Part shown: one piece after another, positions 1-64,000 of the stretch | How the letters are laid out: each line of letters starts with the position of its first letter | How positions within the stretch are numbered: position 1 is the first letter of the stretch | NCBI RefSeq assembly: GCF_947495565.1 | Contig: NZ_CANLZM010000001.1 | Span: 248,001 to 312,000 of the forward strand | Length of the DNA: 64,000 bases | Direction of reading: 5' to 3' | Source of the DNA: an uncultured Pontibacter sp. | GTDB lineage: Bacteria > Bacteroidota > Bacteroidia > Cytophagales > Hymenobacteraceae | Notes under the pieces: model-generated | What the model was told of the DNA's origin: nothing | The model's database searches: none | What the model saw: only the letters and a program-made list of their open reading frames with translations | Position numbers and translations under genes: made by a program

Positions 1-1185
1 GTGGTCTTAACGCCAGCCATTCCTGCCGAGCATGCAGAGTGGGCTTATCTAAAAATACAGGGTTATACTATCAAGAAACGTTCTGAGGTGCTGGGGATAA
101 TTACTTCCTCTGCTTACTCAGTGGCTGTAGCGGGTACACACGGCAAAACCACCACGTCCAGCATTGTGGCGCACCTGCTGCACCATGCCGGTGTGGATTG
201 TTCTGCTTTTTTGGGAGGCATAGCCACTAACCTAAATTCCAATCTGCTTATAGGAAAAGGAGAGGCAGAAAAAGAAGTAGTGGTAGTGGAAGCAGATGAG
301 TATGACCGCTCCTTCCTGACCTTGTTTCCGGATATTGCGATCGTAACTTCCGCAGACCCAGACCACTTAGATATTTATGGAGATAAGGAGGAACTGATCC
401 GCACTTTCCAGAGGTTCATTAGCCAGGTGAAGCCGGGTGGTTTCCTGTTTTTGCACGAGGGTACCGACCCACGCCTGACGGACTTGGTGCAGGAGGGGGT
501 GCAAGTGTACAAGTATAGCCTGAAAAGTGGGGATGCCCATGTAGAAAACTTGCAGGTAAACGGGCGTTGGTTTGAATTTGATGTGGTAAGTCCTTTCGGA
601 AATGTCGAGGGAATCAGGTTGGGAGTGCCGGGATTTCATAATGCCGAGAATACATTAGCGGCCATACTTGCGGCCCAGGTGCTGCAGGTACAGGCTCAAA
701 GTATAAAGGCAGGCGTGGAGGCTTTTACAGGTGTAAAGCGTCGCTTCGAGTTTGTGTATGAGGGCCAAGGCAAAGTATACATTGATGATTACGCGCACCA
801 TCCCAAAGAGATAGATGCGTTTATGAGTTCATTGTTAGCACTTTATCCAAACAAGCGGATAAAAGTGATATTTCAGCCGCACCTCTTTACGCGTACCCGC
901 GACTTTGCAGCGGAGTTTGCAGAGAGCTTGAGTAAGGCAGACGAACTGGTACTTCTGGATATTTACCCGGCACGGGAAAAACCGCTTCCAGGCATTACCT
1001 CAGACATCATTCTGGAGCAGGTAACAAGCCCTGTAAAAGAGTTGATGCACAAAGATGAAGTTGTGAAAAATCTGCTTAAAAACAGTGATTTTGATGTTTT
1101 GGCCACACTTGGGGCTGGAGATATTGACACGCTGGTTAAGCCTATCAAAAATATTTTAGAAAATAATCGGTATGGGCTTGAATAG
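1..1185 (+). CDS. murC: UDP-N-acetylmuramate--L-alanine ligase, 5' end cut by window
   Basis: Cytoplasmic ligase that adds L-alanine to UDP-MurNAc with ATP, the first amino-acid step of the peptidoglycan stem peptide. The visible 394 residues hold the ATP-binding loop GTHGKTTT (about residues 45-52), the EADEYDRSF motif near 98 and the YIDDYAHHPKEI segment typical of Mur ligases. Full MurC is near 460 residues, so roughly the first 70 lie left of the window and the GTG at base 1 is not a real start. The 3' end overlaps ftsQ by 14 bases, which implies translational coupling inside the murC-ftsQ-ftsA-ftsZ cluster usual in this phylum. Confidence 0.96.
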   Translation: MVLTPAIPAEHAEWAYLKIQGYTIKKRSEVLGIITSSAYSVAVAGTHGKTTTSSIVAHLLHHAGVDCSAFLGGIATNLNSNLLIGKGEAEKEVVVVEADEYDRSFLTLFPDIAIVTSADPDHLDIYGDKEELIRTFQRFISQVKPGGFLFLHEGTDPRLTDLVQEGVQVYKYSLKSGDAHVENLQVNGRWFEFDVVSPFGNVEGIRLGVPGFHNAENTLAAILAAQVLQVQAQSIKAGVEAFTGVKRRFEFVYEGQGKVYIDDYAHHPKEIDAFMSSLLALYPNKRIKVIFQPHLFTRTRDFAAEFAESLSKADELVLLDIYPAREKPLPGITSDIILEQVTSPVKELMHKDEVVKNLLKNSDFDVLATLGAGDIDTLVKPIKNILENNRYGLE

Positions 1186-1933
1186 TAGAATAAAATCTTT
1201 AATTTTTGCAGGTTGTAGTGTAATATCAATTGGTGCCATTGCAGGTTTTGCGTCTTCTAGACAAAATGAAAAAATCTGTAAAAAAGTGACAATAAAGATT
1301 GATAATGAGTACAACAATTACTTTATTGGGGATAAGGAAGTTCGAGGCTTGCTAACAAGAGAAGGTGAGCGAAAACTCGAAGGCCTCCCGAATCAAAACA
1401 TCGACCTGAAAAACCTTGAAAAACGCATAGAATCACATAAATTTGTGAAGGATGCTGAGGTCTACAGAGGGTTAGATGGAAACATCCAGGTATTTGTAAA
1501 ACAGAACAGGCCTATTGCTAGAATTATACGTTCAAACCAAGATGTATACATCGATGCTGAGGGGAATATTCTTCCGCTCTCAGACAGGTACACCGCTCGT
1601 GTAATCCCAATAACCAAGTCAGCTCTTATAAAGCCAACTGACCGAGGATTCTTTCAGGATTCTTTAGGCCAATCTTACCTTGCGCTACTCCAGTTCATAG
1701 AGAACGACGAGTTTTGGAAGGCACAGCTTGCCCAGATGCATATAGACGGCAAAGGCAAGGTATCTTTTTTACCTCAGGTAGGCGAACATACGATTGAGTT
1801 CGGTAAGCCAAATAAGGTAGAAGAGAAGTTTAAAAAGTTAGCTATACTTTACAAAGAAGTGTTGCCAACCATGGGTTGGGATCGCTATAAAAGGGTTAAC
1901 TTAGAGTTTGAAGATCAGATTATTTGCGAATAA
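1172..1933 (+). CDS. ftsQ: cell division protein FtsQ
   Basis: Bitopic divisome protein linking early and late division proteins. The 253 residues show a short cytoplasmic start, one membrane segment (about 8-27) and a POTRA/FtsQ periplasmic part. The assignment rests on this architecture, on segments such as VKDAEVYRG and YIDAEGNILPLS, and on position between murC and ftsA. The start ATG lies inside murC. The first third is unusually AT-rich: bases 1261-1320 hold 14 G or C of 60, against about half in murC. FtsQ evolves fast, so weak identity to model proteins is expected. Confidence 0.88.
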   Translation: MGLNSRIKSLIFAGCSVISIGAIAGFASSRQNEKICKKVTIKIDNEYNNYFIGDKEVRGLLTREGERKLEGLPNQNIDLKNLEKRIESHKFVKDAEVYRGLDGNIQVFVKQNRPIARIIRSNQDVYIDAEGNILPLSDRYTARVIPITKSALIKPTDRGFFQDSLGQSYLALLQFIENDEFWKAQLAQMHIDGKGKVSFLPQVGEHTIEFGKPNKVEEKFKKLAILYKEVLPTMGWDRYKRVNLEFEDQIICE

Positions 1934-1944
1934 TAGACATAGAT

Positions 1945-4839: not shown

Positions 4840-4910
4840 AGGCAAGTATAAAATTTAAAAAAGGGGCTGCAGATTAACTGCAGCCCCTTTTTTAAATTTT
4901 ATACTTGCCT
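4840..4910. terminator. 33-bp perfect inverted repeat, bidirectional terminator of ftsZ and the FMN reductase gene
   Basis: Arms 4840-4872 and 4878-4910 are exact reverse complements around a 5-base loop (ATTAA). The centre is a GC-rich stem (GGGGCTGCAG) flanked by A and T runs, so it can act as an intrinsic terminator on both strands. The outer part of each arm carries the word GCAAGTATAAAA in inverted orientation. The hairpin starts 6 bases after the ftsZ stop and ends 3 bases before the convergent stop at 4913. Confidence 0.92.
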
Positions 4911-6426: not shown

Positions 6427-6493
6427 ACGAATTAAGAATCACGAATTAAGAATTTTAAATCGGCTTACTACAGCCCCATTACTAATTCTTAAT
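6427..6493. repeat. direct and inverted repeat in the sdhA-sdhB spacer
   Basis: ACGAATTAAGAAT occurs twice in tandem (6427-6439 and 6441-6453), and ATTAAGAATT (6445-6454) pairs with AATTCTTAAT (6484-6493). The result is an AT-rich hairpin within the operon spacer. It could tune or protect the transcript between the two genes; no function is shown. Confidence 0.6.
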
Positions 6494-6495
6494 CA

Positions 6496-8430
6496 TTACT
6501 TATAGCTACGCTGCGTTAGCTTCACGTTCTCGAACTTGAGCTCCTCTTTATGCAGCACCGGCTCGTTGCCAACGCCTGTAAACTCCCAGGCAGCTACATA
6601 AGTATAATTCTCGTCGTCGCGGAGTGCTTCATTCTCAGGTGTTTGGTACTCCTCACGGAAGTGGCCGCCACAAGACTCATTTCTGTTCAAGGCATCTTCT
6701 ACCATCAGTTCTCCCAGTTCCAAAAAGTCAGCAACACGGTTAGCTTTTTCAAGGGTGATGTTCAGCTCCTCGTTTACACCTACCACTTTCACATCGCGCC
6801 AGAACTCATCACGCAACTTACGAATCTCCTGTTTCGCAAACTGCAGTCCTTCCGCGTTGCGTGCCATACCGCAGTATTCCCACATAATTAAGCCTAAAGC
6901 CTTATGGAAATCATCTACCGTACGCGTACCGTTGATAGAAAGCAACTGGTTGTTTTTAGAGATAACCGCCTGCTCTGCTTCTATAAATGCAGGATGGTCA
7001 ACCGGAACCTTGTCGTAAAGAGTTTTAGCAAGATAATCACCGATTGTGTAAGGCAGTACAAAGTATCCGTCAGCCAAGCCTTGCATCAGGGCAGATGCAC
7101 CCAGGCGGTTGGCGCCGTGGTCTGAGAAGTTTGCCTCGCCGGCAGCATATAAGCCTGGTACGTTAGTCATCAGGTTATAATCTACCCACAGGCCACCCAT
7201 TGTATAGTGTACAGCAGGGTAAATACGCATTGGCCTTTCGTACGGGTTTTCATCCGTGATCTTGGCATACATCTCGAAGAGGTTACCATACTTGGCCGCA
7301 ATGGCTGGCTGGCTATCGCGTTTGATGGCATCGGCAAAGTCGAGGTATACGGCAAGACCTGAGGCTCCTACCCCACGTCCTTCGTCGCAAACCAGTTTGG
7401 CGTTACGTGAGGCCACGTCGCGCGGCACCAGGTTACCGAATGCTGGGTATTTACGCTCCAGGTAGTAATCGCGGTCCTGCTCGGCAATGTCGTTTACTGT
7501 GATTTCACCGTTGCGCAGGCGCTGAGCAGTTTCAACTGTTTTAGGCACCCACACACGTCCGTCGTTACGCAGAGATTCTGACATCAGCGTAAGCTTAGAC
7601 TGATACTCACCGGAAACCGGGATACAGGTTGGGTGAATCTGAGTAAAGCACGGGTTAGCGAACAAAGCGCCTTTCTTGTGTGCTCTCCAGGCTGCGGTAG
7701 CGTTGGAGCCCATCGCATTTGTAGAAAGGAAGAATACGTTACCGTAACCACCTGTAGCCAGTACAACGGCATGCGCACTATGCGATTCGATTTTGCCTGT
7801 GATCAGGTTACGAACCACAATACCACGGGCTTTTCCATCTACAAGCACCAGGTCAAGCATTTCGGTGCGTGGGTACATCTTCACCTTACCGTAAGCGATC
7901 TGACGGTTAAGGGCAGAGTAAGCACCCAGTAGCAGCTGCTGTCCTGTTTGGCCACGGGCGTAGAATGTACGTGATACCTGGGCCCCACCGAAGGAGCGGT
8001 TAGCCAAAAGGCCACCGTACTCACGGGCAAAAGGAACACCCTGGGCCACACACTGGTCGATGATATCTACAGACACCTGCGCCAGACGGTAAACGTTTGC
8101 CTCACGAGCGCGGTAGTCACCACCTTTCACCGTGTCATAGAAAAGACGGAAAACAGAGTCGCCGTCATTCTGGTAGTTTTTGGCTGCATTTATACCACCT
8201 TGCGCCGCAATAGAGTGCGCGCGACGCGGCGTATCCTGGAAGCAAAAGGCCTTTACGTTATAGCCCAATTCTCCGAAAGATGCAGCGGCAGAAGCACCGG
8301 CAAGACCTGTGCCTACTACTATTATATCATATTTACGCTTGTTAGCCGGGTTCACCAGCTTAACGTCAAATTTATGCTTTTCCCACTTTTCGGCTAAAGG
8401 GCCTTCCGGGATTCTTGAATCTAATATCAT
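6496..8430 (-). CDS. sdhA: succinate dehydrogenase/fumarate reductase flavoprotein subunit
   Basis: Catalytic subunit of complex II, oxidising succinate to fumarate. The FAD dinucleotide fold ([20 protein letters not shown], about 38-57) is followed by [14 protein letters not shown], whose histidine (about 72) is the usual covalent FAD attachment site. Catalytic-site segments such as [10 protein letters not shown] and [11 protein letters not shown] are present. At 644 residues it is the longer SdhA form paired with a five-helix cytochrome b. It lies 21 bases after sdhC and 82 bases before sdhB in one transcription unit. Confidence 0.97.
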
Positions 8431-8451
8431 AGCAATATAGATAGCTTTTAA

Positions 8452-9132
8452 TTACACAAGGAAGAAGAAATACAGCGGAATAATTGCAAACCCTAAGCAT
8501 ACAATGATAGAGAATGCCACGCCGAACTTCTGAATAAAGGGAGTGTACTTCTTATGGTCTAAGCCAAGTGTTTGGAAGGCACTCTGGAAGCCGTGAATAA
8601 GATGGTAAGCCAGGGCAACCATTGCGATAACATAAATAGCCACATACCACCAGATCTGGAAAGATTGTACTACACGTAAGTAAAGGTTGTCATACTCCAC
8701 GTCTTCAATCACTACGCCTTCCAGGCCGCCAAAACGGGCAGGAACGAAGAAATTCCATAAGTGAATGATGAGGAAAACCAGGATTACTGTGCCTAAAAGG
8801 CCCATGTTGCGCGAAGACCAGGTGCTGTTCTGCTCCGGGTGGTTATTTACATAATCCACAGGGCGAGCCTTTTTATTACGGCTAGTCAGTACGATGGCAT
8901 CGTAAATGTGAAACAGAAAGCCAGCAACAAGTATAAGCTCCATAAACCGGATAACACCATTGTGGGCCATGAAATCCGAATAAAGGTTAAATGCAGCTCC
9001 ACCGTCGTTTCGGAACAGCTGTAGGTTACCGATAAGGTGCACCACCAGGAAAGAGCAAAGGAAAAGTCCCGTAACTGACATCACGATCTTTCGCCCAACT
9101 GTACTGGAAAACGTTTTAGTAAACCAATTCAT
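8452..9132 (-). CDS. sdhC: succinate dehydrogenase cytochrome b subunit (five-helix type)
   Basis: Membrane anchor of complex II, binding two b hemes and the quinone. The 226 residues show five hydrophobic segments, with histidines in the helices (VVHLIGN, FHIYDA, IHLWNF, AYHLIHGF) as expected for bis-histidine heme ligation. This is the single-anchor type B seen in Bacteroidota and Wolinella-like enzymes, so no sdhD is expected. It is the first gene of the operon; a strong candidate promoter lies at 9177-9207. Confidence 0.93.
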   Translation of the reverse strand: MNWFTKTFSSTVGRKIVMSVTGLFLCSFLVVHLIGNLQLFRNDGGAAFNLYSDFMAHNGVIRFMELILVAGFLFHIYDAIVLTSRNKKARPVDYVNNHPEQNSTWSSRNMGLLGTVILVFLIIHLWNFFVPARFGGLEGVVIEDVEYDNLYLRVVQSFQIWWYVAIYVIAMVALAYHLIHGFQSAFQTLGLDHKKYTPFIQKFGVAFSIIVCLGFAIIPLYFFFLV

Positions 9133-9357: not shown

Positions 9358-12126
9358 ATGCCAAATCTTATACGCCTGAAGTATCTGCTGCATGGTAGTC
9401 TGTTGTGGGTGTTGCTATTGTTGCTGTTGGGTACTTTCTCGGAAGTACAGGCTACTCATATTAGAGCAGGGGATATTACCGCCAAGCGGGACACGACACC
9501 AAACCCTAATCCCCGTCGCTTTTTCTTTACCATGATCGTGTATACTAACCATACTTCCCCGGCCGAAGACCCGGAAGTAACTATATTCACAGGTTCTGGT
9601 AATACCACCTTGCTTGTTCAACGTAAGTCAGTGACCCCCATTAACGCTGAGACTGACAGAGAGGTGTTTGAGTGGGAATTTACGTATCCGTCTGACGGCA
9701 CCTACACCACCTACTGGATTGGCGAGAACCGCGATAATAATATCCTGAACATGGCGCCGCCATCTGACCAGCGGTCTTTTTTCATATCCACCACCATAGA
9801 TATCAATGCTTTGCGCGGCTTTAACAGTACGCCAGTACTTACCGTGGAGCCGATTGACGATGCAGCCATGTTCCGTAAGTTTGTGCACAACCCTGGTGCT
9901 TTTGATGCCGACGGAGACAGCCTATCCTTTAAACTAATTGCCCCACGCTATCAGCAGCCGAGCGGAGACATTGCCGTGGTGCCTGGCTACCGCAACCCGG
10001 ACCAGGTTGCAAACTGCCGCACATCGGATGACAGCGGCCCCGCATTTTTCAGACTCGACCCCATAACCGGCCAGCTAACCTGGGACGCACCCTGCCTTGC
10101 CGGTAAGTATAACATTGCGTTTGTGGTAGAGGAGTGGCGGCGCGGACCAAACGGCGGCGCTGTAAAGATTGGTGAAGTAGTGCGGGATATGCGCATAAAC
10201 GTAGAGGAAAACGAAAACCGGCCGCCTGTGCTGGAGCCAAAAGATACCTGTATTGTTGCGGGTACTACGCTCAGAGCTATAGTGCGCGCCACCGACCCTG
10301 ACGGAGACCGCATTAACCTGACAGTGGCAGGTAGCGGTATTGTGCCGCCTGCTACGCTCGAGCAGTTAACAAACAACCCCGGAGAGGCTACTGGCCGCTT
10401 TGTCTGGAGCACTTCCTGCGAGGATGTAAGACAGGCCCCTTATCAGGTTGTTTTCCGGGCGGAGGACATCCGGCCAAACAATGATGAAAGACTGGCCGAC
10501 CTGCAGCCCTGGAATATAACAGTAATAGGACCGGCACCTGAAAACCTGGATGCCACCAGCGCAGACCGGAACGTAACTCTGACCTGGGATGAATATACTT
10601 GCCAGAACGCAGACAAAATAAGGATTTACCGACGTGAGGGGCCAAGCAACTTTGTGCCAGACGAATGCCAGACGGGCGTACCAGCCTCCACAGGCTATGT
10701 GCTAATTGGTGAGGTAGATGCAGGTGATGTTACGTTTTTTGATGACAACAACGGGGCAGGCTTAGAAGCCGGCGTGGAGTACTGCTATATTATTTATGCT
10801 ACCTTCCCGGCAGTAGGCCGCGGCGAAAGCCTAGCCTCTCTTGAAACTTGCGTGGTAATAGACCAGGACATCCCATATCTGACCAACGTGACGGTAGATG
10901 AAACCGATGTGGCAAACGGCCAGATTACTGTTAAATGGGCACAGCCGATGGAAGTAGAGAAGCTGACACCGCCGTTGGAATATCGTTTGTTCCGCAAAGT
11001 GGGCATGGACACCGGAAACGGCTTTACTGAAGTAAAGCGCACCCGCAACATGGCCGACACTACCTTTGTTGACACCGGGCTGAACACTGTAGAAAATGCC
11101 TATCGTTACCGCCTGGAGTTTTACCAGACACCACAGCCGGGAGGCCAGCCAACGTCGCTGCGCGATAGTACGGAAGCATCCAGCGTATACTTAGAGGTTG
11201 CACCATCCGAAGGCGAAGCAAAAGAGGTTCAGTTGAGCTGGACTTACGATGTGCCTTGGAACAACGAACTGCTGCAGCATTACATTTACCGGCAGGTAGA
11301 AGATGAGTTTATACTTATCGATAGTGTGTCGGCTACGGCTGCAGGCGGAAATTATACGGATGCCGGTACTTTCCAGAACCAGGAGCTGGTGCGCGGGCAG
11401 GAGTATTGCTATTATGTGCAGACAGCAGGCACCTATCAGATTGAAGGACTGCCGGAGCCGCTGCTTAACAACAGCCAGCAAGTATGCGCCACATTGCCAA
11501 GAAATATTTGTCCGCCAGAGTTAAGTATAGAACTGCTTAACTGCGATCTTTTTGCCCAAAACCCTACAGAGCCTCCTTACCAGAATGTTCTGAATTGGGT
11601 GCCGGACACTTCGCCGGACTGCACGGACGAGATCGCTTATTACACCATATACTTTAAACCGACACTGGATGCAGCGTATGTGCGACTGGACACCACAACA
11701 GAAACCACTTACACGCACAGCGGCTTGCAGTCGTTTGCGGGGTGCTATGTAGTAACAGCCACAGATGTGAATGGCCGCGAAAGTGAGTTCAGCAACGAGG
11801 TTTGCAACGACAACTGTATCTCGTTTATACTTCCTAACATCATCACGCCAAACGGAGACAACCTGAACGATGTGTTCCGGCCTAAGGTACGAGCCTTTAT
11901 CAGGAGCATGAAGTTTAAAGTTTACAACAGATGGGGGGTGCAGGTATTTGACGGCGGTACGGTTACCGAAGGAGAAGGACTGTTCATCAACTGGCCTGGA
12001 GTTGACACAGACGGTAACCGCCTTACTGACGGCACCTACTATTACGAGGTTGAAGTAGAGTTTTACACGTTAGACCCGTCCAAAGCCCGTGCCTCTTACA
12101 AGGGTTGGGTAGAGATTGTGCGTTAA
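9358..12126 (+). CDS. large secreted protein with fibronectin-like domains and T9SS type B (gliding-motility-associated) C-terminal domain
   Basis: 922-residue exported protein. A signal peptide (hydrophobic run about 9-30, cleavage likely after VQA) is followed by ATHIRAGDITA, a start common in Cytophagales surface proteins. Cadherin-like segments (DADGDSLSFKL, DPDGDRINLTV) and several fibronectin III-like repeats with paired cysteines come next. The end SFILPNIITPNGDNLNDVF through YNRWGVQVFDG is the CHU_C type B sorting domain recognised by the type IX secretion system. It is therefore probably on the cell surface or released; ligand unknown. Its stop codon overlaps the next ATG (TAATG). 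Confidence 0.9.
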   Translation: MPNLIRLKYLLHGSLLWVLLLLLLGTFSEVQATHIRAGDITAKRDTTPNPNPRRFFFTMIVYTNHTSPAEDPEVTIFTGSGNTTLLVQRKSVTPINAETDREVFEWEFTYPSDGTYTTYWIGENRDNNILNMAPPSDQRSFFISTTIDINALRGFNSTPVLTVEPIDDAAMFRKFVHNPGAFDADGDSLSFKLIAPRYQQPSGDIAVVPGYRNPDQVANCRTSDDSGPAFFRLDPITGQLTWDAPCLAGKYNIAFVVEEWRRGPNGGAVKIGEVVRDMRINVEENENRPPVLEPKDTCIVAGTTLRAIVRATDPDGDRINLTVAGSGIVPPATLEQLTNNPGEATGRFVWSTSCEDVRQAPYQVVFRAEDIRPNNDERLADLQPWNITVIGPAPENLDATSADRNVTLTWDEYTCQNADKIRIYRREGPSNFVPDECQTGVPASTGYVLIGEVDAGDVTFFDDNNGAGLEAGVEYCYIIYATFPAVGRGESLASLETCVVIDQDIPYLTNVTVDETDVANGQITVKWAQPMEVEKLTPPLEYRLFRKVGMDTGNGFTEVKRTRNMADTTFVDTGLNTVENAYRYRLEFYQTPQPGGQPTSLRDSTEASSVYLEVAPSEGEAKEVQLSWTYDVPWNNELLQHYIYRQVEDEFILIDSVSATAAGGNYTDAGTFQNQELVRGQEYCYYVQTAGTYQIEGLPEPLLNNSQQVCATLPRNICPPELSIELLNCDLFAQNPTEPPYQNVLNWVPDTSPDCTDEIAYYTIYFKPTLDAAYVRLDTTTETTYTHSGLQSFAGCYVVTATDVNGRESEFSNEVCNDNCISFILPNIITPNGDNLNDVFRPKVRAFIRSMKFKVYNRWGVQVFDGGTVTEGEGLFINWPGVDTDGNRLTDGTYYYEVEVEFYTLDPSKARASYKGWVEIVR

Positions 12127-12551
12127 TGCAAAGTTTACAAAATATACAGCAGCTGCAGGGTAAGCCAGTCATATTTTACGACGGCACCTGCGGCTTTTGC
12201 CAAGGCAGTGTGCAGGTGGTGCTAAAGTATAACCAGCGGCAAAATTTATACTTTGCAGCCCTGCAATCCGGTGTGATGGAGGCGCTGGTGCCCAAAGCGC
12301 AAATTCCTGGTCCTTTGCCTGATTCCATACTTTTTTACGAGAACGGGAGGCTCTATTCTGAGTCTGAAGCTGCGCTGCGTATTGCCCGCTATCTTGATTT
12401 TCCTTTGTCCATACTTGCTGTTTTCCGCATTATTCCTTTATCTTTCCGGGATTTTGTGTACCGCCTGGTGGCCCGAAACCGCTACCGTATAGCCGGCCGC
12501 ACAGATGCCTGCATGCTGCCAAGCCCGGAACAAAGGGCCAGGTTTTTTTAA
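12126..12551 (+). CDS. DCC-family thiol-disulfide oxidoreductase (DUF393)
   Basis: Small thioredoxin-like protein of 141 residues. The signature YDGTCGFCQGSV carries the CxxC pair that names the family, with SILFYENGRLYSESEAALRIARYL completing the domain. Substrates of DCC proteins are generally unknown. The ATG at 12126 overlaps the stop of the T9SS cargo gene by one base, so translation is probably coupled. A role in disulfides of the cysteine-bearing exported protein is tempting, but the DCC protein has no signal peptide. Confidence 0.88.
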   Translation: MQSLQNIQQLQGKPVIFYDGTCGFCQGSVQVVLKYNQRQNLYFAALQSGVMEALVPKAQIPGPLPDSILFYENGRLYSESEAALRIARYLDFPLSILAVFRIIPLSFRDFVYRLVARNRYRIAGRTDACMLPSPEQRARFF

Positions 12552-12693
12552 ATTGTTAAATGTTAGATTTCTGAACTTTACAAAGTATAGGTTGGCTAAA
12601 CCATAGGCCTATAGTGAAGGGAGCAACTATGTAGCAGTTTAGCCATTTGGCGATTTAACCATACAGCAACTATCAATTAACAAAAAATAAGGA

Positions 12694-13569
12694 ATGAAAG
12701 CATATGTTTTCCCGGGCCAGGGCTCTCAGTTTGTTGGGATGGGCAAAGACCTATATGAGCAGCATGAAGCAGCAAAGCAGCTGTTTGATCAGGCAAACGA
12801 GATACTGGGTTTCAATATCACCGAGATCATGTTTAACGGCACCGACGAGGAGCTGAAGCAAACCAAAGTAACACAACCTGCTATTTTTCTGCATTCTGTA
12901 GCACAGGCCGCCGTAGCCAAGGACTTTGCACCGGATATGGTGGCAGGTCACTCGCTTGGAGAATTCTCTGCTTTGGTAGCCAGTAAAGTGCTGAGTTTTG
13001 AAGATGGCCTGAGGTTAGTATACAAAAGAGCCATGGCCATGCAGGCCGCTTGCGAGGCAAACCCATCTACCATGGCCGCCATACTTGGTCTGGAAGATGC
13101 AAAGGTTGAAGAGGTGTGCGCTTCTATAGACGAGGTAGTAGTGGCCGCCAATTATAACTGCCCGGGCCAACTGGTTATCTCCGGCTCTAACAAAGGAATT
13201 GAGATAGCTTGCGAGAAAATGAAAGAGGCTGGTGCCAAGCGTGCGCTACCGCTCCCTGTAGGTGGTGCGTTCCACTCGCCGCTGATGAAACCAGCTGAAG
13301 TTGAACTGGCGAAGGCTATTGAGGAAACAACTTTCTCGGAAGGCATTTGCCCTATCTATCAGAATGTAGATGCCCAGCCGCATACCGATCCGCAGGAGAT
13401 TAAGCAGAACCTGATCAGCCAGCTGACTGCGCCCGTGCGTTGGACACAATCGGTGCAGCAAATGGTAGCCGACGGTGCCACACATTTTGTAGAGTGCGGC
13501 CCGGGTAAAGTGCTGCAGGGCCTGGTGAAAAAGATTGAGCGTACAGCCGAAGTTAGCTCTGCCGAATAA
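12694..13569 (+). CDS. fabD: malonyl-CoA:ACP transacylase
   Basis: Moves malonyl from CoA to acyl carrier protein for fatty-acid chain extension. FPGQGSQFVGMG is at the N-terminus, GHSLGE (85-90) holds the nucleophile Ser87, and the histidine in GGAFHSPLM is the catalytic base. The VECGPGKVLQGL motif is near the end. Length is 291 residues, typical for FabD. It stands alone, with other fab genes not in view. A weak hairpin follows at 13594-13629. Confidence 0.96.
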   Translation: MKAYVFPGQGSQFVGMGKDLYEQHEAAKQLFDQANEILGFNITEIMFNGTDEELKQTKVTQPAIFLHSVAQAAVAKDFAPDMVAGHSLGEFSALVASKVLSFEDGLRLVYKRAMAMQAACEANPSTMAAILGLEDAKVEEVCASIDEVVVAANYNCPGQLVISGSNKGIEIACEKMKEAGAKRALPLPVGGAFHSPLMKPAEVELAKAIEETTFSEGICPIYQNVDAQPHTDPQEIKQNLISQLTAPVRWTQSVQQMVADGATHFVECGPGKVLQGLVKKIERTAEVSSAE

Positions 13570-13593
13570 GCATCAGAAGTAGTATAAACTATA

Positions 13594-13629
13594 AAACGCC
13601 TTCTTTGGCCTGCGCCGGGGGAGGCGTTT
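13594..13629. terminator. hairpin after fabD
   Basis: AAACGCCT (13594-13601) pairs with AGGCGTTT (13622-13629) around a GC-rich 20-base loop, 24 bases after the fabD stop and before the convergent acetyltransferase gene. The T-tract is poor, so efficiency is uncertain. Confidence 0.5.
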
Positions 13630-13658
13630 GTGCTTTGCAGAAGTATAGATGAACAGAT

Positions 13659-14183
13659 TTATACTTTAAAGTCGGTTTGATACAGCAGCAGCTCTTCAGC
13701 ATCATGTGGCAATTTTACGAGCTTTACGTACCGCAGACCTAGTGTTTCCAGTAGCTTTTGGCTGGCAATATTGCCTTTTGTGGTGATGGCGCAAATCTGC
13801 TTTAAACCGAAATGCTCAAAAGCTGCATTGCTCAGTTTACTCGCTGCCTCAAAAGCATAGCCTTGCTTTTCATACTGCGGCAGGAAAGCAAAGCCGATAT
13901 CAATTCCATCCAAGCCCTGTCTGTCGTAAAGCCCGCAGGTTCCTATTTTAGCGCCGTCAGATTTCCGGATAACTGTGTAGTTGCCGTAGCCCAGCTTTTT
14001 TAATTGCGGTAGTATTCTGCTCCCGATATATTCTTCTGCCGCCTTAACAGAGCGCACGTTCCTGTCTCCGATATACTTTAGCCACTGCGGCGTGTTCAGG
14101 AGCTCAACTATAAAAGCGGCATCTGCAGTAGAAGTTGGTTTAATAAGCAGTCGCTCTGTTTCGAAGGATAGGTAGGCGCTCAA
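13659..14183 (-). CDS. GNAT family N-acetyltransferase (RimJ/RimL-like)
   Basis: 174 residues with the N-terminal LSFETERLLIKPTSTADAAFIVELLN seen in the RimJ/RimL branch. The acetyl-CoA-binding region is IGTCGLYDRQGLDGIDIGFAFLPQYEKQGYAFEA, followed by ICAITTKGNIASQKLLETLGL. It would acetylate an amino group of a protein terminus or small molecule; the substrate cannot be assigned. The gene reads toward fabD and is separated from folK by 34 bases, so it may be the last gene of a three-gene unit with the hydrolase and folK. Confidence 0.88.
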   Translation of the reverse strand: MSAYLSFETERLLIKPTSTADAAFIVELLNTPQWLKYIGDRNVRSVKAAEEYIGSRILPQLKKLGYGNYTVIRKSDGAKIGTCGLYDRQGLDGIDIGFAFLPQYEKQGYAFEAASKLSNAAFEHFGLKQICAITTKGNIASQKLLETLGLRYVKLVKLPHDAEELLLYQTDFKV

Positions 14184-14217
14184 AGCTTTGTTGTTGGTAA
14201 GTATGATTTAATACGAG

Positions 14218-14703
14218 TTACTCCTCAAACTCCCATACCTCCAGCTCATCCGGGCACTCCTGCAGCAGTTGGTTTATACTTTTGTGCAGCAACGGGTGCT
14301 CCAACTCCGGTACCAGCTCTGAAAGCGGCAGCAACGTAAAACGTCGCAGGTGCAGCTGTGGGTGAGGAATGGTTAAGCGTTGCGTCTGCTGCACCTGGTT
14401 AGCGTAAAAAAGTATGTCGATGTCAATCACGCGGGCGCCCCAGTGCTCATGGCGTATACGGCCGAGTTCCTGCTCAATTTGGTTTATCTGCTGCAGCACC
14501 TGCTCAGGCGTTAATTCCGTCTGCACCTCCAGCACCTGGTTCAGGAAGTTAGGTTGGTCGGTTTTGCCCCAGGCGGCAGTTTCGTATATTTTTGAGCTGC
14601 GCATGAGGCGGCCCACCTGCTGGTTTATACTTTCGCGGGCTTGCTGTAAGTATGAGGTGCGGTCGCCGAGGTTGCCGCCAAGCAATAAGTAAACCTTAGG
14701 CAT
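14218..14703 (-). CDS. folK: 2-amino-4-hydroxy-6-hydroxymethyldihydropteridine diphosphokinase
   Basis: Folate pathway enzyme that transfers pyrophosphate from ATP to hydroxymethyl-dihydropterin. The start VYLLLGGNLGDR is the diagnostic nucleotide/pterin-binding motif; RIRHEHWGARVIDIDILFY contains the metal-binding aspartates, and LTIPHPQLHLRRFTLLPL is the C-terminal signature. Length 161 is normal. Its ATG lies 8 bases inside the end of the upstream hydrolase gene, so the two are coupled. Confidence 0.95.
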   Translation of the reverse strand: MPKVYLLLGGNLGDRTSYLQQARESINQQVGRLMRSSKIYETAAWGKTDQPNFLNQVLEVQTELTPEQVLQQINQIEQELGRIRHEHWGARVIDIDILFYANQVQQTQRLTIPHPQLHLRRFTLLPLSELVPELEHPLLHKSINQLLQECPDELEVWEFEE

Positions 14704-15541
14704 GCCTTCGGAAGAAATTTATACTTAGGTCTGCGGCTGAACGCGCTGCGTCTGGCAGTTCATTTTTATCGTAAGGGTGTTGCCCGCCAAAGGAGTGGTC
14801 GGCTTCGGGGAGCAGGTGCAGTTCGGCATCCGGCTTCCAGCTTTGCAGGTCGTGGGCCATTTGGGTTGGCAGCGTTTCGTCTCGCTCGCCGTGCAGCAGG
14901 AGCAAGGGTTGATCCATGCGCTTTACCACAGTGGGTATATCCAAGCGGTACTTGTTCTCAATAAAATTTTCTACAATCTGGTAATACAGCGGCATCTGAA
15001 CACCGGTGCGTCCGTTCTGCACATATTGTACGCCTTGCTCTTTCCACTTGCCCATGTGCAGCTCATCCCAGCGGTTATCGTACCTGTTTACACCGGCCCA
15101 ACTGGCCACAGCTTTTACGCGCGGCTCTTCGGCAGCTTTCAGAATCACGGCGCCTCCGCCACGGCTATGGCCTATCAGGTAAATACGGCTCAGGTCCAGT
15201 TCTTTGGCCTCGACAGGAGGGTTTTCGGAGTGAAGCAAATCGATAAGTGCCTGCATATCATCCAGCTCCAGACTGAAGTTATTTTGCCCGAACGCCTCCA
15301 TGTCGTGCATGTCAGAGTAGTTGTCTACGGTGGTGCCGTTGTAGGCAAAGTTAAATTTGATAAACACAAAGCCTTGCTTGGCAAAATAAGTGGCCAGCAG
15401 GTTAAAATGTCCCCAGTCTTTAAATCCCTTAAAACCGTGGGCGAATAGGATAATTGGTTTGGGGTTACTGTCAGGCCAATAGGTGACATCGGCTGTAAAA
15501 GGGCGTCCGTGCTCGGGATAAACTACAAAATCAACTTTCAT
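14696..15541 (-). CDS. alpha/beta hydrolase (dienelactone hydrolase-like)
   Basis: 281-residue soluble serine hydrolase. The oxyanion strand FAHGFKGFKDWGHF is followed by the nucleophile elbow GHSRGGG (about 125-131). The acid is likely the Asp in HGERDETLP and the base the His in EADHSFGG. A cap-like insert between them contains many Trp and Tyr. No signal peptide is seen, so it acts in the cytoplasm; the substrate is unknown. The 3' end overlaps folK by 8 bases. Confidence 0.86.
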   Translation of the reverse strand: MKVDFVVYPEHGRPFTADVTYWPDSNPKPIILFAHGFKGFKDWGHFNLLATYFAKQGFVFIKFNFAYNGTTVDNYSDMHDMEAFGQNNFSLELDDMQALIDLLHSENPPVEAKELDLSRIYLIGHSRGGGAVILKAAEEPRVKAVASWAGVNRYDNRWDELHMGKWKEQGVQYVQNGRTGVQMPLYYQIVENFIENKYRLDIPTVVKRMDQPLLLLHGERDETLPTQMAHDLQSWKPDAELHLLPEADHSFGGQHPYDKNELPDAARSAADLSINFFRRHA

Positions 15542-15802
15542 CTTCTGGGTTGCTTAGTGGCTGATTGTTAAATTGTTGCTTAGAGTTATTTACTATACTT
15601 GATTGGCTTCTGTTAAAGTCGTGCTGCACAAATGTATACTTACGAAGCAAGGGCATACTCGTAACCGAGCGTTCGTCTAAGCCTGACATTAATTTTTGTC
15701 ATCAAACAATTTAACTATTCAGCAATTTAACAATAAAACACTGTTTTGCCAGCCCGCGTTTGGAAAGCACTTCAGGAGGCCGTAATATTGCGGACTTAAT
15801 AC

Positions 15803-16780
15803 ATGAGCATAAGTCTAAACGAAATACAGGCGCCCATCGCGTCGGAGATGCAGCAGTTCGAGAAGAAGTTCAGGGCTTCCATGAAGACCAGGGTTTTGCT
15901 TCTAGACCGAATTATGAGCTACATCGTGAAGCGCAAAGGGAAGCAGATGCGGCCTATGTTCGTGTTTTTCACAGCCAAGCTTTTCCAGGAAAGTATAACC
16001 GAAGCCACTTACCGCGGCGCCGCCCTGATAGAATTGCTGCACACGGCTACGCTGGTGCACGATGATGTGGTGGACGATGCCAACTACCGTCGCGGCTTCT
16101 TTTCCGTAAATGCCCTCTGGAAAAACAAGATTGCAGTTCTGGTAGGCGATTATCTGCTCTCCAAAGGCCTGTTGCTCTCGCTGCAGAACGACGATTACGA
16201 GCTGCTCAAAATCGTTTCTAATGCAGTGAAGGAGATGAGTGAAGGAGAGCTGCTGCAGATTGAGAAAGCCCGCCGCCTCGATATAACCGAGGATGTATAC
16301 TTTGATATTATTCGCCAGAAAACCGCTTCTTTAATTGCCTCCTGTTGTGCTGTGGGTGCGGCCTCTGCCGGCGCTTGCAAAGAGGAGATTGAGAAGGCCC
16401 GCTTGTTCGGTGAGAAGGTGGGGATTGCCTTTCAGATTAAAGACGACCTTTTTGATTATGGCACCGCCGAGATTGGCAAACCTGTAGGCATCGATATCAA
16501 AGAAAAGAAAATGACCCTGCCGCTGATACATGCCTTACGCGAAGCTGATTGGCTGACCAAGCGCCGTGTAATTTACAACGTGAAAAACAACAACGGCGAC
16601 AACAAGCGCGTGCAGCAGGTGATCGATTTCGTAAAAAACTCCGGCGGCATAGACTACACCATACAGCAGATGAACCAGTACCATGCCGAGGCGCTGGCCA
16701 TTCTCCATACTTTCCCAAATACCCCATCACGCCGCTCGCTAGAGCAGCTTATCGCTTATACTATAGAGCGGGAGAAGTAA
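15803..16780 (+). CDS. polyprenyl diphosphate synthase (all-trans, long-chain type)
   Basis: Condenses isopentenyl diphosphate onto allylic diphosphates, probably making the side chain of menaquinone. The first aspartate-rich motif DDVVDD is at residues 87-92 within LVHDDVVDDANYRRG, and the second, DDLFD, at 214-218. GDYLLSKG and GKPVGIDIKEKKMTLPLIHA are further family signatures. Length 325 is usual. Chain length cannot be fixed from sequence by eye. The ATG at 15803 is chosen because the conserved helix follows directly; a long leader of about 250 bases precedes it. Confidence 0.94.
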   Translation: MSISLNEIQAPIASEMQQFEKKFRASMKTRVLLLDRIMSYIVKRKGKQMRPMFVFFTAKLFQESITEATYRGAALIELLHTATLVHDDVVDDANYRRGFFSVNALWKNKIAVLVGDYLLSKGLLLSLQNDDYELLKIVSNAVKEMSEGELLQIEKARRLDITEDVYFDIIRQKTASLIASCCAVGAASAGACKEEIEKARLFGEKVGIAFQIKDDLFDYGTAEIGKPVGIDIKEKKMTLPLIHALREADWLTKRRVIYNVKNNNGDNKRVQQVIDFVKNSGGIDYTIQQMNQYHAEALAILHTFPNTPSRRSLEQLIAYTIEREK

Positions 16781-17077
16781 TTTAATTGTTAACTGTTGGA
16801 TTGTTGATTTGCTTTGTAGGGACAGGTCGTGACCTGTCCGCGCTATGGCTGCAGCAATGAAATTTATACTTTAGCAGTAGCAGTTATAGGTTCCCCTCCT
16901 TTGACAAGGGGGGAAGTTAGACCCGACGCTGGCGAAGTATAAATCCTGCCCATCCATCCCCTAAATCCTGATTCAGGCAGTTTCAACCTTATACTTCTGT
17001 AAATATCAGCCGTAATTTTGCAACAGGTAGTATAGGTACAGTAGGTAGCTTTGATGACACAAAATAACCTATGAAAC
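16781..17077. other. intergenic stretch with repeat-like hairpins
   Basis: No gene supported. It holds a 9-bp palindromic hairpin GGACAGGTC/GACCTGTCC with a 2-base loop (16820-16839). It also holds a C-rich then G-rich hairpin around 16890-16915 (TTCCCC...GGGGGGAA), and three copies of the AAGTATA/TATACTT word. These resemble dispersed intergenic repeats but copies elsewhere in the genome cannot be checked here. Confidence 0.55.
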
Positions 17078-17698: not shown

Positions 17699-17782
17699 TA
17701 TCTAACTACCCCTTTATCTCTAAGGCTACCATTGGGGACACATTTTGTTCCTGCCGCAAGATTACATCTTGTGGCTTATAAC

Positions 17783-17846
17783 GGGGCAAGCTTTCAGCTT
17801 GCAAAAGTATGAAATGCGCAATCAACGCAAGCTGAAAGCCTGCCCC
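17783..17846. repeat. 20-bp inverted repeat, REP-like
   Basis: Arms 17783-17802 and 17827-17846 are reverse complements with one mismatch (core GCAAGCT...AGCTTGC), separated by 24 bases. The element lies in an untranslated spacer. It is not followed by a T-tract, which argues against a simple terminator. Confidence 0.65.
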
Positions 17847-17896
17847 ATGGGAAAACACGAGTTGAAAACTCGCGGTAAGTTTGCTGGAGTAAACAC

Positions 17897-17930
17897 AAAG
17901 GCCGCTGCTTCATCAGAAACAGCGGCCTTT
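17897..17930. terminator. terminator hairpin downstream of the TlpA-like gene
   Basis: AAAGGCCGCTG (17897-17907) pairs with CAGCGGCCTTT (17920-17930), an 11-bp perfect stem with a 12-base loop, 31 bases beyond the stop of the minus-strand gene. Confidence 0.7.
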
Positions 17931-17961
17931 GCCTTTATACATGCCAATCAACAATTATCCA

Positions 17962-35896: not shown

Positions 35897-36313
35897 ATGA
35901 AGAAACTGTATACGGCAGAGGTTACTGCTACCGGAGGCCGTCGTGGTCAAGTTACATCCTCAGACGGTATTATAGACATGAAATTAGCGCTTCCTGAAGG
36001 CTTAGGAGGGCAGGGGGGCGCAACTAACCCAGAACAGTTATTTGCCGCAGGGTATGCTGCCTGTTTCCAGAGCGCATTATTGGTAGTAGCTGGTAAGCAT
36101 CATTTACGCCTTGACCCGGAATCTACCGTGTCGGCGCACGTAGACCTGAACCAGAACGAGGATGGTGGCTATGGCCTAAGCGTGAAACTTGAAGTAGATA
36201 TCAAGGGAGTAGAAAAAGACAAAGCAAAGGAACTGGTAGACGAAGCGCACCAGATTTGCCCGTACTCCATTGGCACTCGCGGTAATATAGAAGTTGACCT
36301 GCACGTAGTGTAG
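35897..36313 (+). CDS. organic hydroperoxide resistance protein (Ohr/OsmC family)
   Basis: 138-residue cytoplasmic thiol peroxidase that reduces organic and fatty-acid hydroperoxides. The start YTAEVTATGGRRGQVTSSDG and GGATNPEQLFAAGYAACFQSAL are Ohr signatures. The peroxidatic cysteine is in AACFQS and the resolving cysteine in ICPYS. The separation of the two and the N-terminal motif favour Ohr over OsmC. No adjacent OhrR gene is seen. It is monocistronic and followed by two hairpins. Confidence 0.93.
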   Translation: MKKLYTAEVTATGGRRGQVTSSDGIIDMKLALPEGLGGQGGATNPEQLFAAGYAACFQSALLVVAGKHHLRLDPESTVSAHVDLNQNEDGGYGLSVKLEVDIKGVEKDKAKELVDEAHQICPYSIGTRGNIEVDLHVV

Positions 36314-36325
36314 CAAGTATAAAAA

Positions 36326-44675: not shown

Positions 44676-44891
44676 ATACTAGCTCTGGCTGCAGCTCAAA
44701 GATAAGTGATTTAAGAAGTATACAAGTATAAAGTACCTCGAACTGATAATCATTTATACCTGTCGCAGCTGCTCCTCTACCAGTTGCTTCAGTACAATAA
44801 TCGGTTAAAATTTTATCGATCTCACCCTTTGCAACCAGATATCACTTTTTGGCATCTTAAGTATAGTCGTTACTAAAAATAAACCAAAATT

Positions 44892-45107: not shown

Positions 45108-45189
45108 CTTCAAAATTATACTGCAGCAAGTATAAATCTAAGCCGATTAAGCTTGAGCCATACTTGCCAAGGAACCGCTTCAGGTAAGC

Positions 45190-61240: not shown

Positions 61241-61494
61241 AATTGTCCCTCCAGTCTAAAATATTAATCAACCAAAAATAGTAAAGGAGGGGCCGACACA
61301 GCCCCAAAAGAGATTGGGGAGCTGTTACAGGTCGTGCAGCTCGTAGCCTGTGATGAAAATCTGTGTATGTGCTAAATGTGCAGGCATTTTCTATTTTGCA
61401 AGACTACAAAGATAAGGCACGCGCAAGTATAAATCCAAAAGAAAAAGTTGTTGCAACTATAATTTGTTGATTGTCAGAATGAAATTTTTCATGG

Positions 61495-62292: not shown

Positions 62293-62354
62293 AGTTCTGG
62301 GTTTATACTTTGGCAGTGCCAGTGTGGCGGAAATCTAATAAAGAAAGGTTATAC

Positions 62355-63275: not shown

Positions 63276-63288
63276 AACGGCTTTTTAC

Positions 63289-63666
63289 TTAGTCTTCCTT
63301 ATTAGTCAGATCCTGCTCAATCTCGTGCAGAAAAACACGATCAATCGCCTCTTCCACAGTTGGCAGGATGTTTAGCACAGACTCCAGCTTAGAGATTGAG
63401 ATCAGCTTCATTACGTGGTCTTGCAAACCGGTCAGAATCAGCAAGCCGCTAGATGAGTTGCATAGGCGGTTAGCGATCAGTATGGAGCTAAGGCCGGACG
63501 AATCTGTATATTTAACTTCGCTCAGGTCTAGAATCAGGTTGTTGATCCCTTCTGCATTCAATTTCACGAACTCAGACTTCAGGTCTGGCGCGATCGAAGT
63601 ATCCAACTTCTTCTCATCTATCGTGATAATCGTGTAGTTTTCTTTCTTATCTATCGTGTACTTCAT
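63289..63666 (-). CDS. STAS-domain anti-anti-sigma-like protein
   Basis: 125 residues from the ATG at 63666 (a TTG at 63672 would add two). One STAS domain: YTIITIDEKKLDTSIAPDLKSEF, then NLILDLSEVKYTDSSGLSSIL, where the Ser-Ser after Thr-Asp is the usual phosphorylation site of SpoIIAA/RsbV-type proteins. It probably takes part in partner switching with an RsbW-like kinase, but no kinase gene adjoins it. It precedes rnz by 13 bases; purC follows the opposite side 54 bases upstream. Confidence 0.9.
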   Translation of the reverse strand: MKYTIDKKENYTIITIDEKKLDTSIAPDLKSEFVKLNAEGINNLILDLSEVKYTDSSGLSSILIANRLCNSSSGLLILTGLQDHVMKLISISKLESVLNILPTVEEAIDRVFLHEIEQDLTNKED

Positions 63667-63720
63667 AGTCAACCAGTAAAGGATTTAAATGCGAATGTAC
63701 CAAAATCTACTTTAACAAAC

Positions 63721-64000
63721 TTAATTTTTGGTAGTAAAAATATTGTCATTAATGTGTTGCTCAATGCGTTTGAACACTGAGTTGTAATCTTCTTTCAGGA
63801 ATTTTTCGCCTGTAAATACTTCATAGAGCTCTATATAGCGCTCAGAGATGCCGCCTACAACCGCATCTGTCATTTCAGGAATCTGCTGCCCGTCTTTGCC
63901 CTGAAAACCGTTTTCGATAAGCCACTGGCGAACAAACTCCTTTGAGAGCTGACGCTGCGGCTCGCCGTTTTGCTGGCGCTCTGCGTAGCCTTCGCTGTAA
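63721..64000 (-). CDS. purC: phosphoribosylaminoimidazole-succinocarboxamide synthase, 3' end only
   Basis: The minus strand at the window edge encodes the last 92 residues of SAICAR synthase, an ATP-dependent step of purine synthesis. Recognised from [25 protein letters not shown] and the C-terminal [19 protein letters not shown]. The stop TAA is at 63723-63721. The start lies beyond base 64000. It is followed on the same strand, after 54 bases, by the STAS and rnz genes, so all may form one transcript. Confidence 0.92.

What the first reader, a model, noticed from the sequence alone, without database searches (positions are those of the whole stretch)
1..64000. The word AAGTATA/TATACTT is massively over-represented on both strands and in every frame
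By eye I counted 21 occurrences of AAGTATA or TATACTT in 12001-18000 and 9 in 43201-45200. Equal base frequencies predict about 0.7 and 0.25. Hits lie in genes and spacers. In genes they occur in different frames (ATA-CTT for Ile-Leu, AGT-ATA for Ser-Ile, AAG-TAT-Axx for Lys-Tyr, GTA-TAC-TTT for Val-Tyr-Phe), so the DNA word rather than a peptide is favoured. Many share the extended form GCAAGTATAAA. This is the behaviour of DNA uptake sequences or HIP1-like iterated words. I know of no such word described for this lineage.
Basis: partly seen in the sequence, partly recalled or inferred. Interest (0 to 1): 0.82.

Follow-up and report, generated by a model that had tools for sequence, protein, structure and literature searches.

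The report
Three-dialect DNA watermark in Pontibacter genomes
Most Pontibacter genomes examined are stamped thousands of times with one short DNA word, which comes in three spellings in different species; it looks like the "self" label that some bacteria use to recognise DNA of their own kind, yet this group seems to lack the pili known to read such labels.

Summary
AAGTATA/TATACTT occurs 67+67 times in the window against 13 expected. AAGTATAA occurs 2246+2296 times in the 4.52-Mb genome against about 80 per strand for the reversed word. The genus is Pontibacter. The word is enriched in all six coding frames and in spacers, shows no leading/lagging bias in a relative, and is sparse on three plasmid-like contigs.

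The word has dialects. Of 50 genus genomes, 20 carry AAGTATAA, 12 AGGTATAG, 4 AACTATAG, 3 both the first and the last, at about 1000 or more per strand; 11 reach that with none. In aligned genomes some A-words are converted in place to C-words (7 of 12 against 8 of 633 control 7-mers in the best pair).

This behaves like DNA uptake sequence dialects of Neisseriaceae. The type IV pilus ATPase was not convincingly found in any of 37 genomes. ComEC (37 of 37) and helix-hairpin-helix proteins (50 of 50) occur with or without the word, and a DUF5689 prediction failed. No gene tracking the word was found. Best reading: an uptake-sequence-like self-label with an unknown, pilus-independent reader. Uptake is inferred, not shown.

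The parts
1..64000. 67 AAGTATA (+) and 67 TATACTT (-) copies spread over the whole window; all 134 start positions are printed
   Evidence: 13.2 expected (order-2 Markov)
4842..4852 (+). extended form GCAAGTATAAA, facing the - copy at 4898-4908
4898..4908 (-). extended form, reverse strand
36313..36323 (+). extended form GCAAGTATAAA
41174..41184 (-). extended form, reverse strand
45126..45136 (+). extended form GCAAGTATAAA
50160..50170 (+). extended form GCAAGTATAAA
53915..53925 (-). extended form, reverse strand
61423..61433 (+). extended form GCAAGTATAAA
40859..40868 (.). overlapping inverted pair AAGTATACTT (palindromic double word); further ones start at 45049 and 51646
   Evidence: + starts 40859, 45049, 51646 with - starts 3 bases on; 42 on both strands together, so 21 sites, in 504 kb
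6600..8929 (.). one of the longer word-free stretches of the window, between the words at 6600 and 8929; it covers most of the succinate dehydrogenase flavoprotein gene (6496-8430, -) used for the genus tree

Best explanation
The word is a DNA uptake sequence, or works like one: a short self-label that a sequence-specific DNA-binding protein of the cell prefers when free DNA is taken up or recombined. Copies spread because word-bearing fragments replace word-free alleles more often, so the word accumulates over the chromosome on both strands, in all frames and most densely where coding constraint is weak. Shown here: enrichment, strand symmetry, chromosome-biased spread, three dialects, bilingual genomes, conservation above controls, in-place conversion. 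Inferred: that the sorting step is DNA uptake. Since no type IV pilus ATPase was convincingly found, it should be a surface or periplasmic protein of a pilus-independent transformation machinery as in other Bacteroidota, or a cytoplasmic recombination factor.
For: Genome-wide 4542 AAGTATAA, 1 per ~1.0 kb, 28-fold over the reversed word. Six-frame enrichment. No replication-strand bias in a one-contig relative, 248 leading versus 246 lagging, p=0.96. Sparse on three plasmid-like contigs (20 kb of each): AAGTATA 2 vs 2.1, 4 vs 2.3, 11 vs 4.6 expected, and AAGTATAA 0.10, 0.05, 0.15 per kb against 0.69, 0.45, 1.03 per kb in the same genomes. More long word-free gaps than random (11 over 3 kb, 2.65 expected), two of them with a transposase or an integrase. 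Three dialects over 39 of 50 genomes; the 9 treed B genomes form one branch with 99/99 support, 3 more B genomes were not treed. Bilingual A+C genomes G027, G033, G074, with G095 partly so. In-place conversion A to C at 10 of 71 query sites; where the other six bases are kept, G033 vs G031 has C at 7 of 12 words against 8 of 633 controls (p=5e-10), G033 vs G018 3 of 9 against 6 of 538 (p=2e-4). Conservation 50 of 120 words against 23 of 80 for six control words together, G012 vs G022; 40 of 68 C-words in the C pair.
Against: No gene separates word-bearing from wordless genomes: ComEC 37 of 37, helix-hairpin-helix family 50 of 50, DUF5689 in 12 of 30 word-bearing and 4 of 7 wordless, and no tracking gene in 12-20 kb around comEC in 20 genomes. 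G022 has broken comEC and double-HHH frames but as many words as its sister G012 in aligned DNA (117 and 120), although its whole-genome count is lower (1274 vs 1815 per strand); the breaks may be assembly indels. The known readers, type IV pili, appear absent. One-mismatch neighbours are mostly not enriched, unlike the decaying copies that a simple drive-and-decay balance might leave. In-place conversion is not seen for G027 vs G018 (0 of 2) nor for B words read in A genomes (3 of 18 against 15% of controls). One control word, AAGTTTA, is kept as often as the word (8 of 15). I know of no report of natural transformation in Pontibacter (recall).
Confidence: 0.6

Rival explanations
1. HIP1-like: an orphan DNA methyltransferase recognises the word, and a methylation-linked repair or mutation process creates and keeps copies. 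Dialects would be methylases of different specificity.
For: Elhai 2015 (PMC4390886, abstract, outline and passages) describes HIP1 and alternate HIPs with matching methylases, so 'dialects' are not unique to uptake sequences. PF02384 methylase matches occur in 50 of 50 genomes.
Against: The word is not palindromic. PF01555 is absent from 13 of 39 word-bearing genomes, and one of these, G117, has only weak PF02384 hits (best 7e-5). Three plasmid-like contigs, which share the cell's repair machinery, are poor in it, unless they arrived recently. PF02086, PF07669 and PF00145 were not tested.
Confidence: 0.15
2. A self-recognition site read inside the cell: a Chi-like site for a recombination nuclease, or a label that spares DNA from a defence nuclease.
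For: Short non-palindromic word, thousands of copies, few on plasmid-like contigs. A change of specificity of the nuclease would also produce dialects.
Against: No leading/lagging bias (248 vs 246), whereas Chi of E. coli is skewed (recalled). Enrichment of about 8-fold in coding and 10-fold in noncoding DNA, in every frame, is above that of known Chi sites (recalled). Per-site selection would have to act at thousands of sites.
Confidence: 0.12
3. A binding site for a nucleoid-associated or chromosome-organising protein, kept by selection at each site.
For: Roughly one AAGTATA per 500 bases, higher density in spacers, some overlapping inverted pairs.
Against: Positions turn over between species; A-words are conserved at 2 of 68 sites between A and C genomes. 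Eleven congeners have no such word at high count. A switch of spelling at thousands of sites is hard to reach by selection alone.
Confidence: 0.08
4. Compositional, codon-usage or mutational-bias effect, or a repeat family that carries the 7-mer.
For: Maximal-order Markov statistics do not flag the 7-mer.
Against: Reversed word is 28-fold rarer; all six frames exceed synonymous shuffles; flanks carry almost no information beyond ~3 bases, so it is no repeat family; G-to-C exchange at the third base of words is ~37-fold above matched 7-mers in the pooled pairs, 11 of 25 against 20 of 1683.
Confidence: 0.03

Closest known systems
DNA uptake sequence (DUS) dialects of Neisseriaceae (Frye 2013, PMC3630211: passages read; Treangen 2008, PMC2397512: passages read)
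   Same: Short non-palindromic word in thousands of copies, dialects that cluster on the phylogeny, a kept core (CTG there, TATA here), a species with two dialects at once, overlapping dyad pairs, over-representation between genes and rarity in the accessory genome.
   Different: There a longer word read by the type IV minor pilin ComP and shown to steer transformation. Here an 8-base motif in Bacteroidota, no pilus ATPase convincingly found, no uptake test, no reader known.
Uptake signal sequence (USS) of Pasteurellaceae (recalled; titles and abstract starts)
   Same: A word of about 9 bases, about one per 1.2 kb in Haemophilus (recalled), two lineage types (recalled).
   Different: Different word and phylum; type IV pilus-dependent uptake there (recalled).
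HIP1 and alternate HIPs of cyanobacteria (Elhai 2015, PMC4390886: abstract, outline, passages)
   Same: Highly iterated octamer, replaced by other words in some species.
   Different: Palindromic, tied to methylases of matching specificity; no universal methylase seen here in the two families tested.
Transformation of Riemerella (Huang 2021, PMC8459023: abstract, outline and passages; R. columbina, PMC7965970: passages)
   Same: Same phylum; ComEC, DprA, ComF, RecA plus four essential proteins unlike known uptake machinery; R. columbina prefers its own DNA.
   Different: The putative uptake k-mers visible in the passage are A-runs with one other base; no dialect word seen. The DUF5689 family of one essential gene does not track the word in Pontibacter.

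Membership tests
DNA uptake sequence (DUS/USS) | Short non-palindromic word strongly over-represented genome-wide on both strands | tested here: met
DNA uptake sequence (DUS/USS) | No replication-strand bias | tested here: met
   248 vs 246 in 20 tiles of G022; own tiles p=0.09
DNA uptake sequence (DUS/USS) | Lineage-specific dialects with a shared core | tested here: met
   AAGTATAA, AGGTATAG, AACTATAG; TATA shared
DNA uptake sequence (DUS/USS) | Rare on recently acquired or mobile DNA | tested here: met
   three plasmid-like contigs (20 kb each of 74-204 kb) at 1.0, 1.7 and 2.4 times expectation for the 7-mer and 7- to 9-fold below their genomes for the 8-mer; a 4.9-kb chromosome stretch of G021 had only 2 words. 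Small sample
DNA uptake sequence (DUS/USS) | Competence genes present in carriers | tested here: inconclusive
   ComEC 37 of 37 and HHH family 50 of 50, but also in wordless genomes; comEC frames broken in G009 and G022, short in G018 (555 residues)
DNA uptake sequence (DUS/USS) | Type IV pilus machinery and a DNA-binding minor pilin | tested here: not met
   PF00437 gives only short matches of 19-26 bits, 2 of 37 genomes barely above the cut-off; pilin families not searched
DNA uptake sequence (DUS/USS) | Word increases uptake or transformation | not testable with these tools
   needs transformation assays; this defines membership, so the word is not filed as a proven DUS
HIP1-like iterated word | Palindromic octamer | tested here: not met
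   AAGTATAA is not a palindrome; the palindromic double word AAGTATACTT occurs at only 21 sites in 504 kb
HIP1-like iterated word | Matching methyltransferase in every carrier | tested here: inconclusive
   PF01555 in 31 of 50, missing from 13 of 39 carriers; PF02384 matches in 50 of 50, but only weak in G117 and G006; other classes not tested
Chi / KOPS | Orientation bias along the replichore | tested here: not met

The most novel reading that the evidence does not exclude
Pontibacter has a DNA uptake-sequence system whose reader is not a type IV pilin: a new class of sequence-specific DNA receptor in the pilus-independent transformation machinery of Bacteroidota. The genus holds at least three dialects, and bilingual species (G027, G033, G074) catch a dialect switch in progress, with some words rewritten in place by a G/C exchange.
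Probability: 0.42. Interest if true: 0.92.

Novelty: new variant of a known kind. Interest (0 to 1): 0.83.

Why it matters
To my knowledge, uptake words with dialects are established only in Neisseriaceae and Pasteurellaceae, both pilus users (recalled). A phylum-distant genus with 39 word-bearing and 11 wordless species among 50 examined, three dialects and bilingual intermediates is a natural experiment. If the word steers uptake, it would also help genetic work in Pontibacter.

Tried and rejected
1) Codon or peptide origin: rejected, all six frames enriched. 2) Repeat family or mobile element: rejected, flanks uninformative. 3) Chi/KOPS: rejected, no strand bias. 4) Loss and decay of the word in 'intermediate' genomes G018/G031: rejected, they carry dialect C. 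5) Type IV pilus reader: PF00437 not convincingly present. 6) Prediction that the DUF5689 protein (essential in Riemerella) tracks the word: failed, 12 of 30 word-bearing and 4 of 7 wordless have it; the own copy sits beside SusD-like and phosphoesterase-like frames (my reading of the translations, not a family search). 7) A tracking gene near comEC in 20 genomes: none among gene clusters shared by at least 3; the stretches are not fully syntenic. 8) Word erosion in G022: not seen in aligned DNA. 9) PF01555 or PF02384 methylase as universal maker: not supported. 10) A fourth dialect in wordless genomes: no clear one in 16-80 kb samples of G002, G007, G024, G025, G026, G028, G034, G060 and G142. 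G142 shows weak GGTATA enrichment and G002 weak AACTATA (4.2-fold); AGGTAGAG in G028 and CTGTCCCA in G060 proved local clusters (7 of 11 copies in tandem arrays, and 9 of 9 within 3.7 kb); G140 and G151 were not sampled.

Limits: genes were called by long-ORF rules, not a gene finder. Only 504 of 4524 kb of the own genome were read letter by letter for these counts; the rest is known by pattern counts. 'Wordless' means below 1000 per strand for all three words; several of the 11 still show 2- to 4.5-fold excess over the reversed word (for example G007 614 vs 138 for A; G142 375 vs 93 for B). G033 has 1004 and 998 C-words on its strands. A and C words were not searched in other genera of the family; B was (150 genomes of 5 other genera, at most 107 per strand, near its control), and A was searched in 22 genomes of other families, not enriched. 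The sdhA tree has a weak backbone; word versus none needs at least 3 changes on it. Counts reuse sites across genome pairs; one search counts query sites once, though sites of G027 and G033 may be orthologous.
Full report
WHAT IS THERE. The window is G000:C1:248001-312000 of a 4.52-Mb genome in 44 contigs. Its protein 9358-12126 finds nine Pontibacter contigs at 65-89% identity, and nothing else above 36%, so the genus is Pontibacter (Bacteroidota, Cytophagales). The window has 67 AAGTATA and 67 TATACTT; an order-2 Markov model predicts 13.2 in all, and it is the most over-represented 7-mer. The reversed word occurs 6 times. Maximal-order Markov statistics do not list the 7-mer because the 6-mers AAGTAT and AGTATA are themselves inflated; that is a property of the statistic, but it is recorded as a point against.

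THE WORD ITSELF. In 464 kb of the own genome (window plus 20 tiles) there are 902 copies, 85.5 expected at order 2 and 167.8 at order 3. AAGTATAA is 521 against 24.5. Of the 21 single-base neighbours of AAGTATA only AAGTATG (4.9-fold) is clearly enriched; AACTATA is 2.25-fold and the others lie between 0.76 and 1.81. The next base is A 58%, G 19%, C 17%, T 6%; beyond three bases the flanks are nearly flat. In coding sequence (345 long ORFs) each of the six frame/orientation classes is enriched 3.8- to 24-fold over a synonymous-codon shuffle; noncoding DNA has 3.6 copies per kb, coding 1.5, and 320 against 32.6 expected in noncoding DNA. Spacers of 20-600 bases between convergent genes are densest: 7.3 per kb against 5.1 tandem and 4.4 divergent. 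Spacing is mildly clustered (coefficient of variation 1.25), with an excess of overlapping inverted pairs AAGTATACTT, 21 sites in 504 kb.

STRAND AND REPLICON. In G022, one contig of 5.46 Mb, 20 tiles of 20 kb give 248 words on the leading and 246 on the lagging strand as judged by GC skew (p=0.96). The own tiles give p=0.09. Second contigs of three A genomes, sampled 20 kb each, are poor in the word: G001:C2 2 AAGTATA against 2.1 expected, G020:C2 4 against 2.3, G021:C2 11 against 4.6. For AAGTATAA they have 0.10, 0.05 and 0.15 per kb, their whole genomes 0.69, 0.45 and 1.03. A 20-kb chromosome stretch of G001 has 24 against 2.1; the only chromosome stretches of G020 and G021 counted there were 4.9 kb, with 4 and 2 words. 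G021:C2 carries a relaxase, TraG and TraM, and G001:C2 a transposase and an AbiEii gene; G020:C2 carries metabolic genes and its nature is less clear. Long word-free gaps in the own genome exceed chance (11 over 3 kb against 2.65). Ten proteins from the gaps were tested: a transposase (L032), a phage integrase (L026), two SusC-type receptors (L023, L147), two hydrolases (L013), a release-factor-domain protein (L023) and three without a Pfam match, so not every gap is mobile DNA.

DIALECTS. Counting AAGTATAA in 59 genomes (own, 36 congeners, 22 of other families) showed rich and poor genomes inside the genus and no enrichment outside it. Sequence from poor genomes revealed a second word, AGGTATAG, and sequence from two 'intermediate' genomes a third, AACTATAG (AACTATA 498 against 31.7 in 180 kb). 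Tally of 50 genus genomes at about 1000 per strand: A only 20 (G000, G001, G004, G006, G008, G012, G013, G014, G019, G020, G021, G022, G023, G030, G032, G035, G036, G095, G117, G148); B 12 (G003, G005, G009, G010, G011, G015, G016, G017, G029, G124, G132, G138); C 4 (G018, G031, G129, G144); A and C 3 (G027, G033 with 1004/998 C-words, G074); none 11 (G002, G007, G024, G025, G026, G028, G034, G060, G140, G142, G151), some of these with a 2- to 4.5-fold excess over control. G095 has 455 C-words besides 2987 A-words. The nine named Pontibacter loci (L001-L009, 22.8 kb each) all show A. In a DNA tree of the succinate dehydrogenase gene of 37 genomes the nine treed B genomes form one branch (99/99); the four states need 5 changes and word/none needs 3. 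The backbone is weak, so gains and losses are not polarised. B was searched in 150 genomes of five other genera of the family and is not enriched there; A and C were not searched in those genera.

TURNOVER AND CONVERSION. Against nine named relatives, words of the window are conserved at 27-56% of aligned sites, AT-rich 7-mers at 18-30%. Between G012 and G022 (110 kb aligned of 180 kb each, 78.7% identity) 50 of 120 words are kept, against 23 of 80 for six control words together, though one control, AAGTTTA, is kept at 8 of 15. C-words are kept at 40 of 68 sites between G018 and G031, B-words at 40 of 68 between G010 and four others, but A-words at only 2 of 68 sites between A and C genomes. 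So words are held within a dialect and mostly lie at new places in another dialect. Part of the change is in place. At A-words of the bilingual genomes where the other six bases are kept, the C genomes have C at 11 of 25 against 20 of 1683 for AT-rich control 7-mers. By query site, 10 of 71 A-words are converted and 10 kept. By pair: G033 against G031 7 of 12 versus 8 of 633 (p=5e-10), G033 against G018 3 of 9 versus 6 of 538 (p=2e-4), G027 against G031 1 of 2 versus 5 of 265 (p=0.04), G027 against G018 0 of 2. For A against B the signal is small: 4 of 6 A-words against 15% of controls, and in the other direction 3 of 18 against 15%, no excess.

WHO READS IT. PF00437, the type IV pilus/type II secretion ATPase, gives only short matches of 19-26 bits, most of them in frames of about 650 residues, in all 37 genomes, 2 of them barely over the cut-off; I read that as absence of the pilus. 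ComEC (PF03772) is present in 37 of 37, with broken frames in G009 and G022 and a short one in G018. Helix-hairpin-helix family PF12836 is present in 50 of 50; a double-domain protein of 304-346 residues has a whole frame in 49 of the 50, all 11 wordless genomes among them, and is broken in G022. Riemerella, also Bacteroidota, transforms with ComEC, DprA, ComF, RecA and four proteins unlike known machinery, one a DUF5689 protein (PMC8459023, abstract and passages), and R. columbina prefers its own DNA (PMC7965970, passages). I therefore predicted that DUF5689 would track the word; it does not (12 of 30 word-bearing, 4 of 7 wordless). The comEC neighbourhoods of 20 genomes hold no tracking gene. 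G022, with broken comEC and double-HHH frames, shows no word erosion against G012 in aligned DNA (117 versus 120), though its whole-genome count is lower (1274 against 1815 per strand); the breaks may be assembly indels. Methylase families: PF01555 is missing from 13 of 39 word-bearing genomes; PF02384 has matches in all 50 but only weak ones in G117 and G006, and G117 has no PF01555 either.

COMPARISON WITH THE KNOWN. The pattern resembles the dialects of the Neisseriaceae uptake sequence in the respects tested by sequence: thousands of copies, dialects with a shared core, a species with two dialects, dyad pairs (passages of PMC3630211), rarity in accessory DNA and over-representation between genes (passages of PMC2397512). 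It is not filed as a proven uptake sequence: the defining effect on uptake cannot be tested here, and the known pilus machinery was tested and not met. HIP words also switch between species together with their methylases (PMC4390886), so dialects alone do not decide; the non-palindromic word, the word-poor plasmid-like contigs and the methylase results lower that rival. On print: of ten paper searches two named Pontibacter, one with no paper and one whose 20 listed papers do not hold the name (1630 papers in all); (the bare word) returned 1650 papers of which the 20 listed are unrelated. They cover open-access texts only.

VERDICT.

Noticed in passing
own genome, 504 kb sample: Several 6-base palindromes are strongly depleted (both strands counted): GTCGAC 2 against 40 expected, CATATG 56 against 293, CTCGAG, GACGTC and GGATCC 0.22-0.27-fold; possible traces of past restriction systems.
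   Followed up: no
L195 and L196 (G022): comEC lies in two overlapping frames (residues 1-448 and 421-701 of the G000 protein) and the double helix-hairpin-helix gene is split over frames in the same one-contig genome; real double loss or assembly indels.
   Followed up: partly
L199:6068-6313 (G021:C2): 18 copies of AATTAATA at an exact 14-base period beside a relaxase gene (6467-8044) on a conjugative-plasmid-like contig; possibly iterons or an oriT region.
   Followed up: no
L083, L084, L136 (G026): Dispersed AATTATTC motif, 4-7 copies per 20 kb on both strands, followed in two of the three copies printed by a GGCCCTCCGGA stretch; looks like an intergenic repeat family in a wordless genome.
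   Followed up: no
L203 (G142:C19:1-16000): A genome wordless at the set threshold shows weak GGTATA enrichment (37 against 10.5 in 16 kb; GAGGTATA 8 against 0.6): possibly a weak or fourth dialect.
   Followed up: partly
G002 loci L062, L140, L201, L202: AACTATA 4.2-fold and GACTATA 4.6-fold in 65 kb: a weak or fading C-like dialect.
   Followed up: partly
L137:550-581 and 1003-1026 (G028): Local tandem array of AGGTAGAG units in a wordless genome, not a dispersed word.
   Followed up: yes
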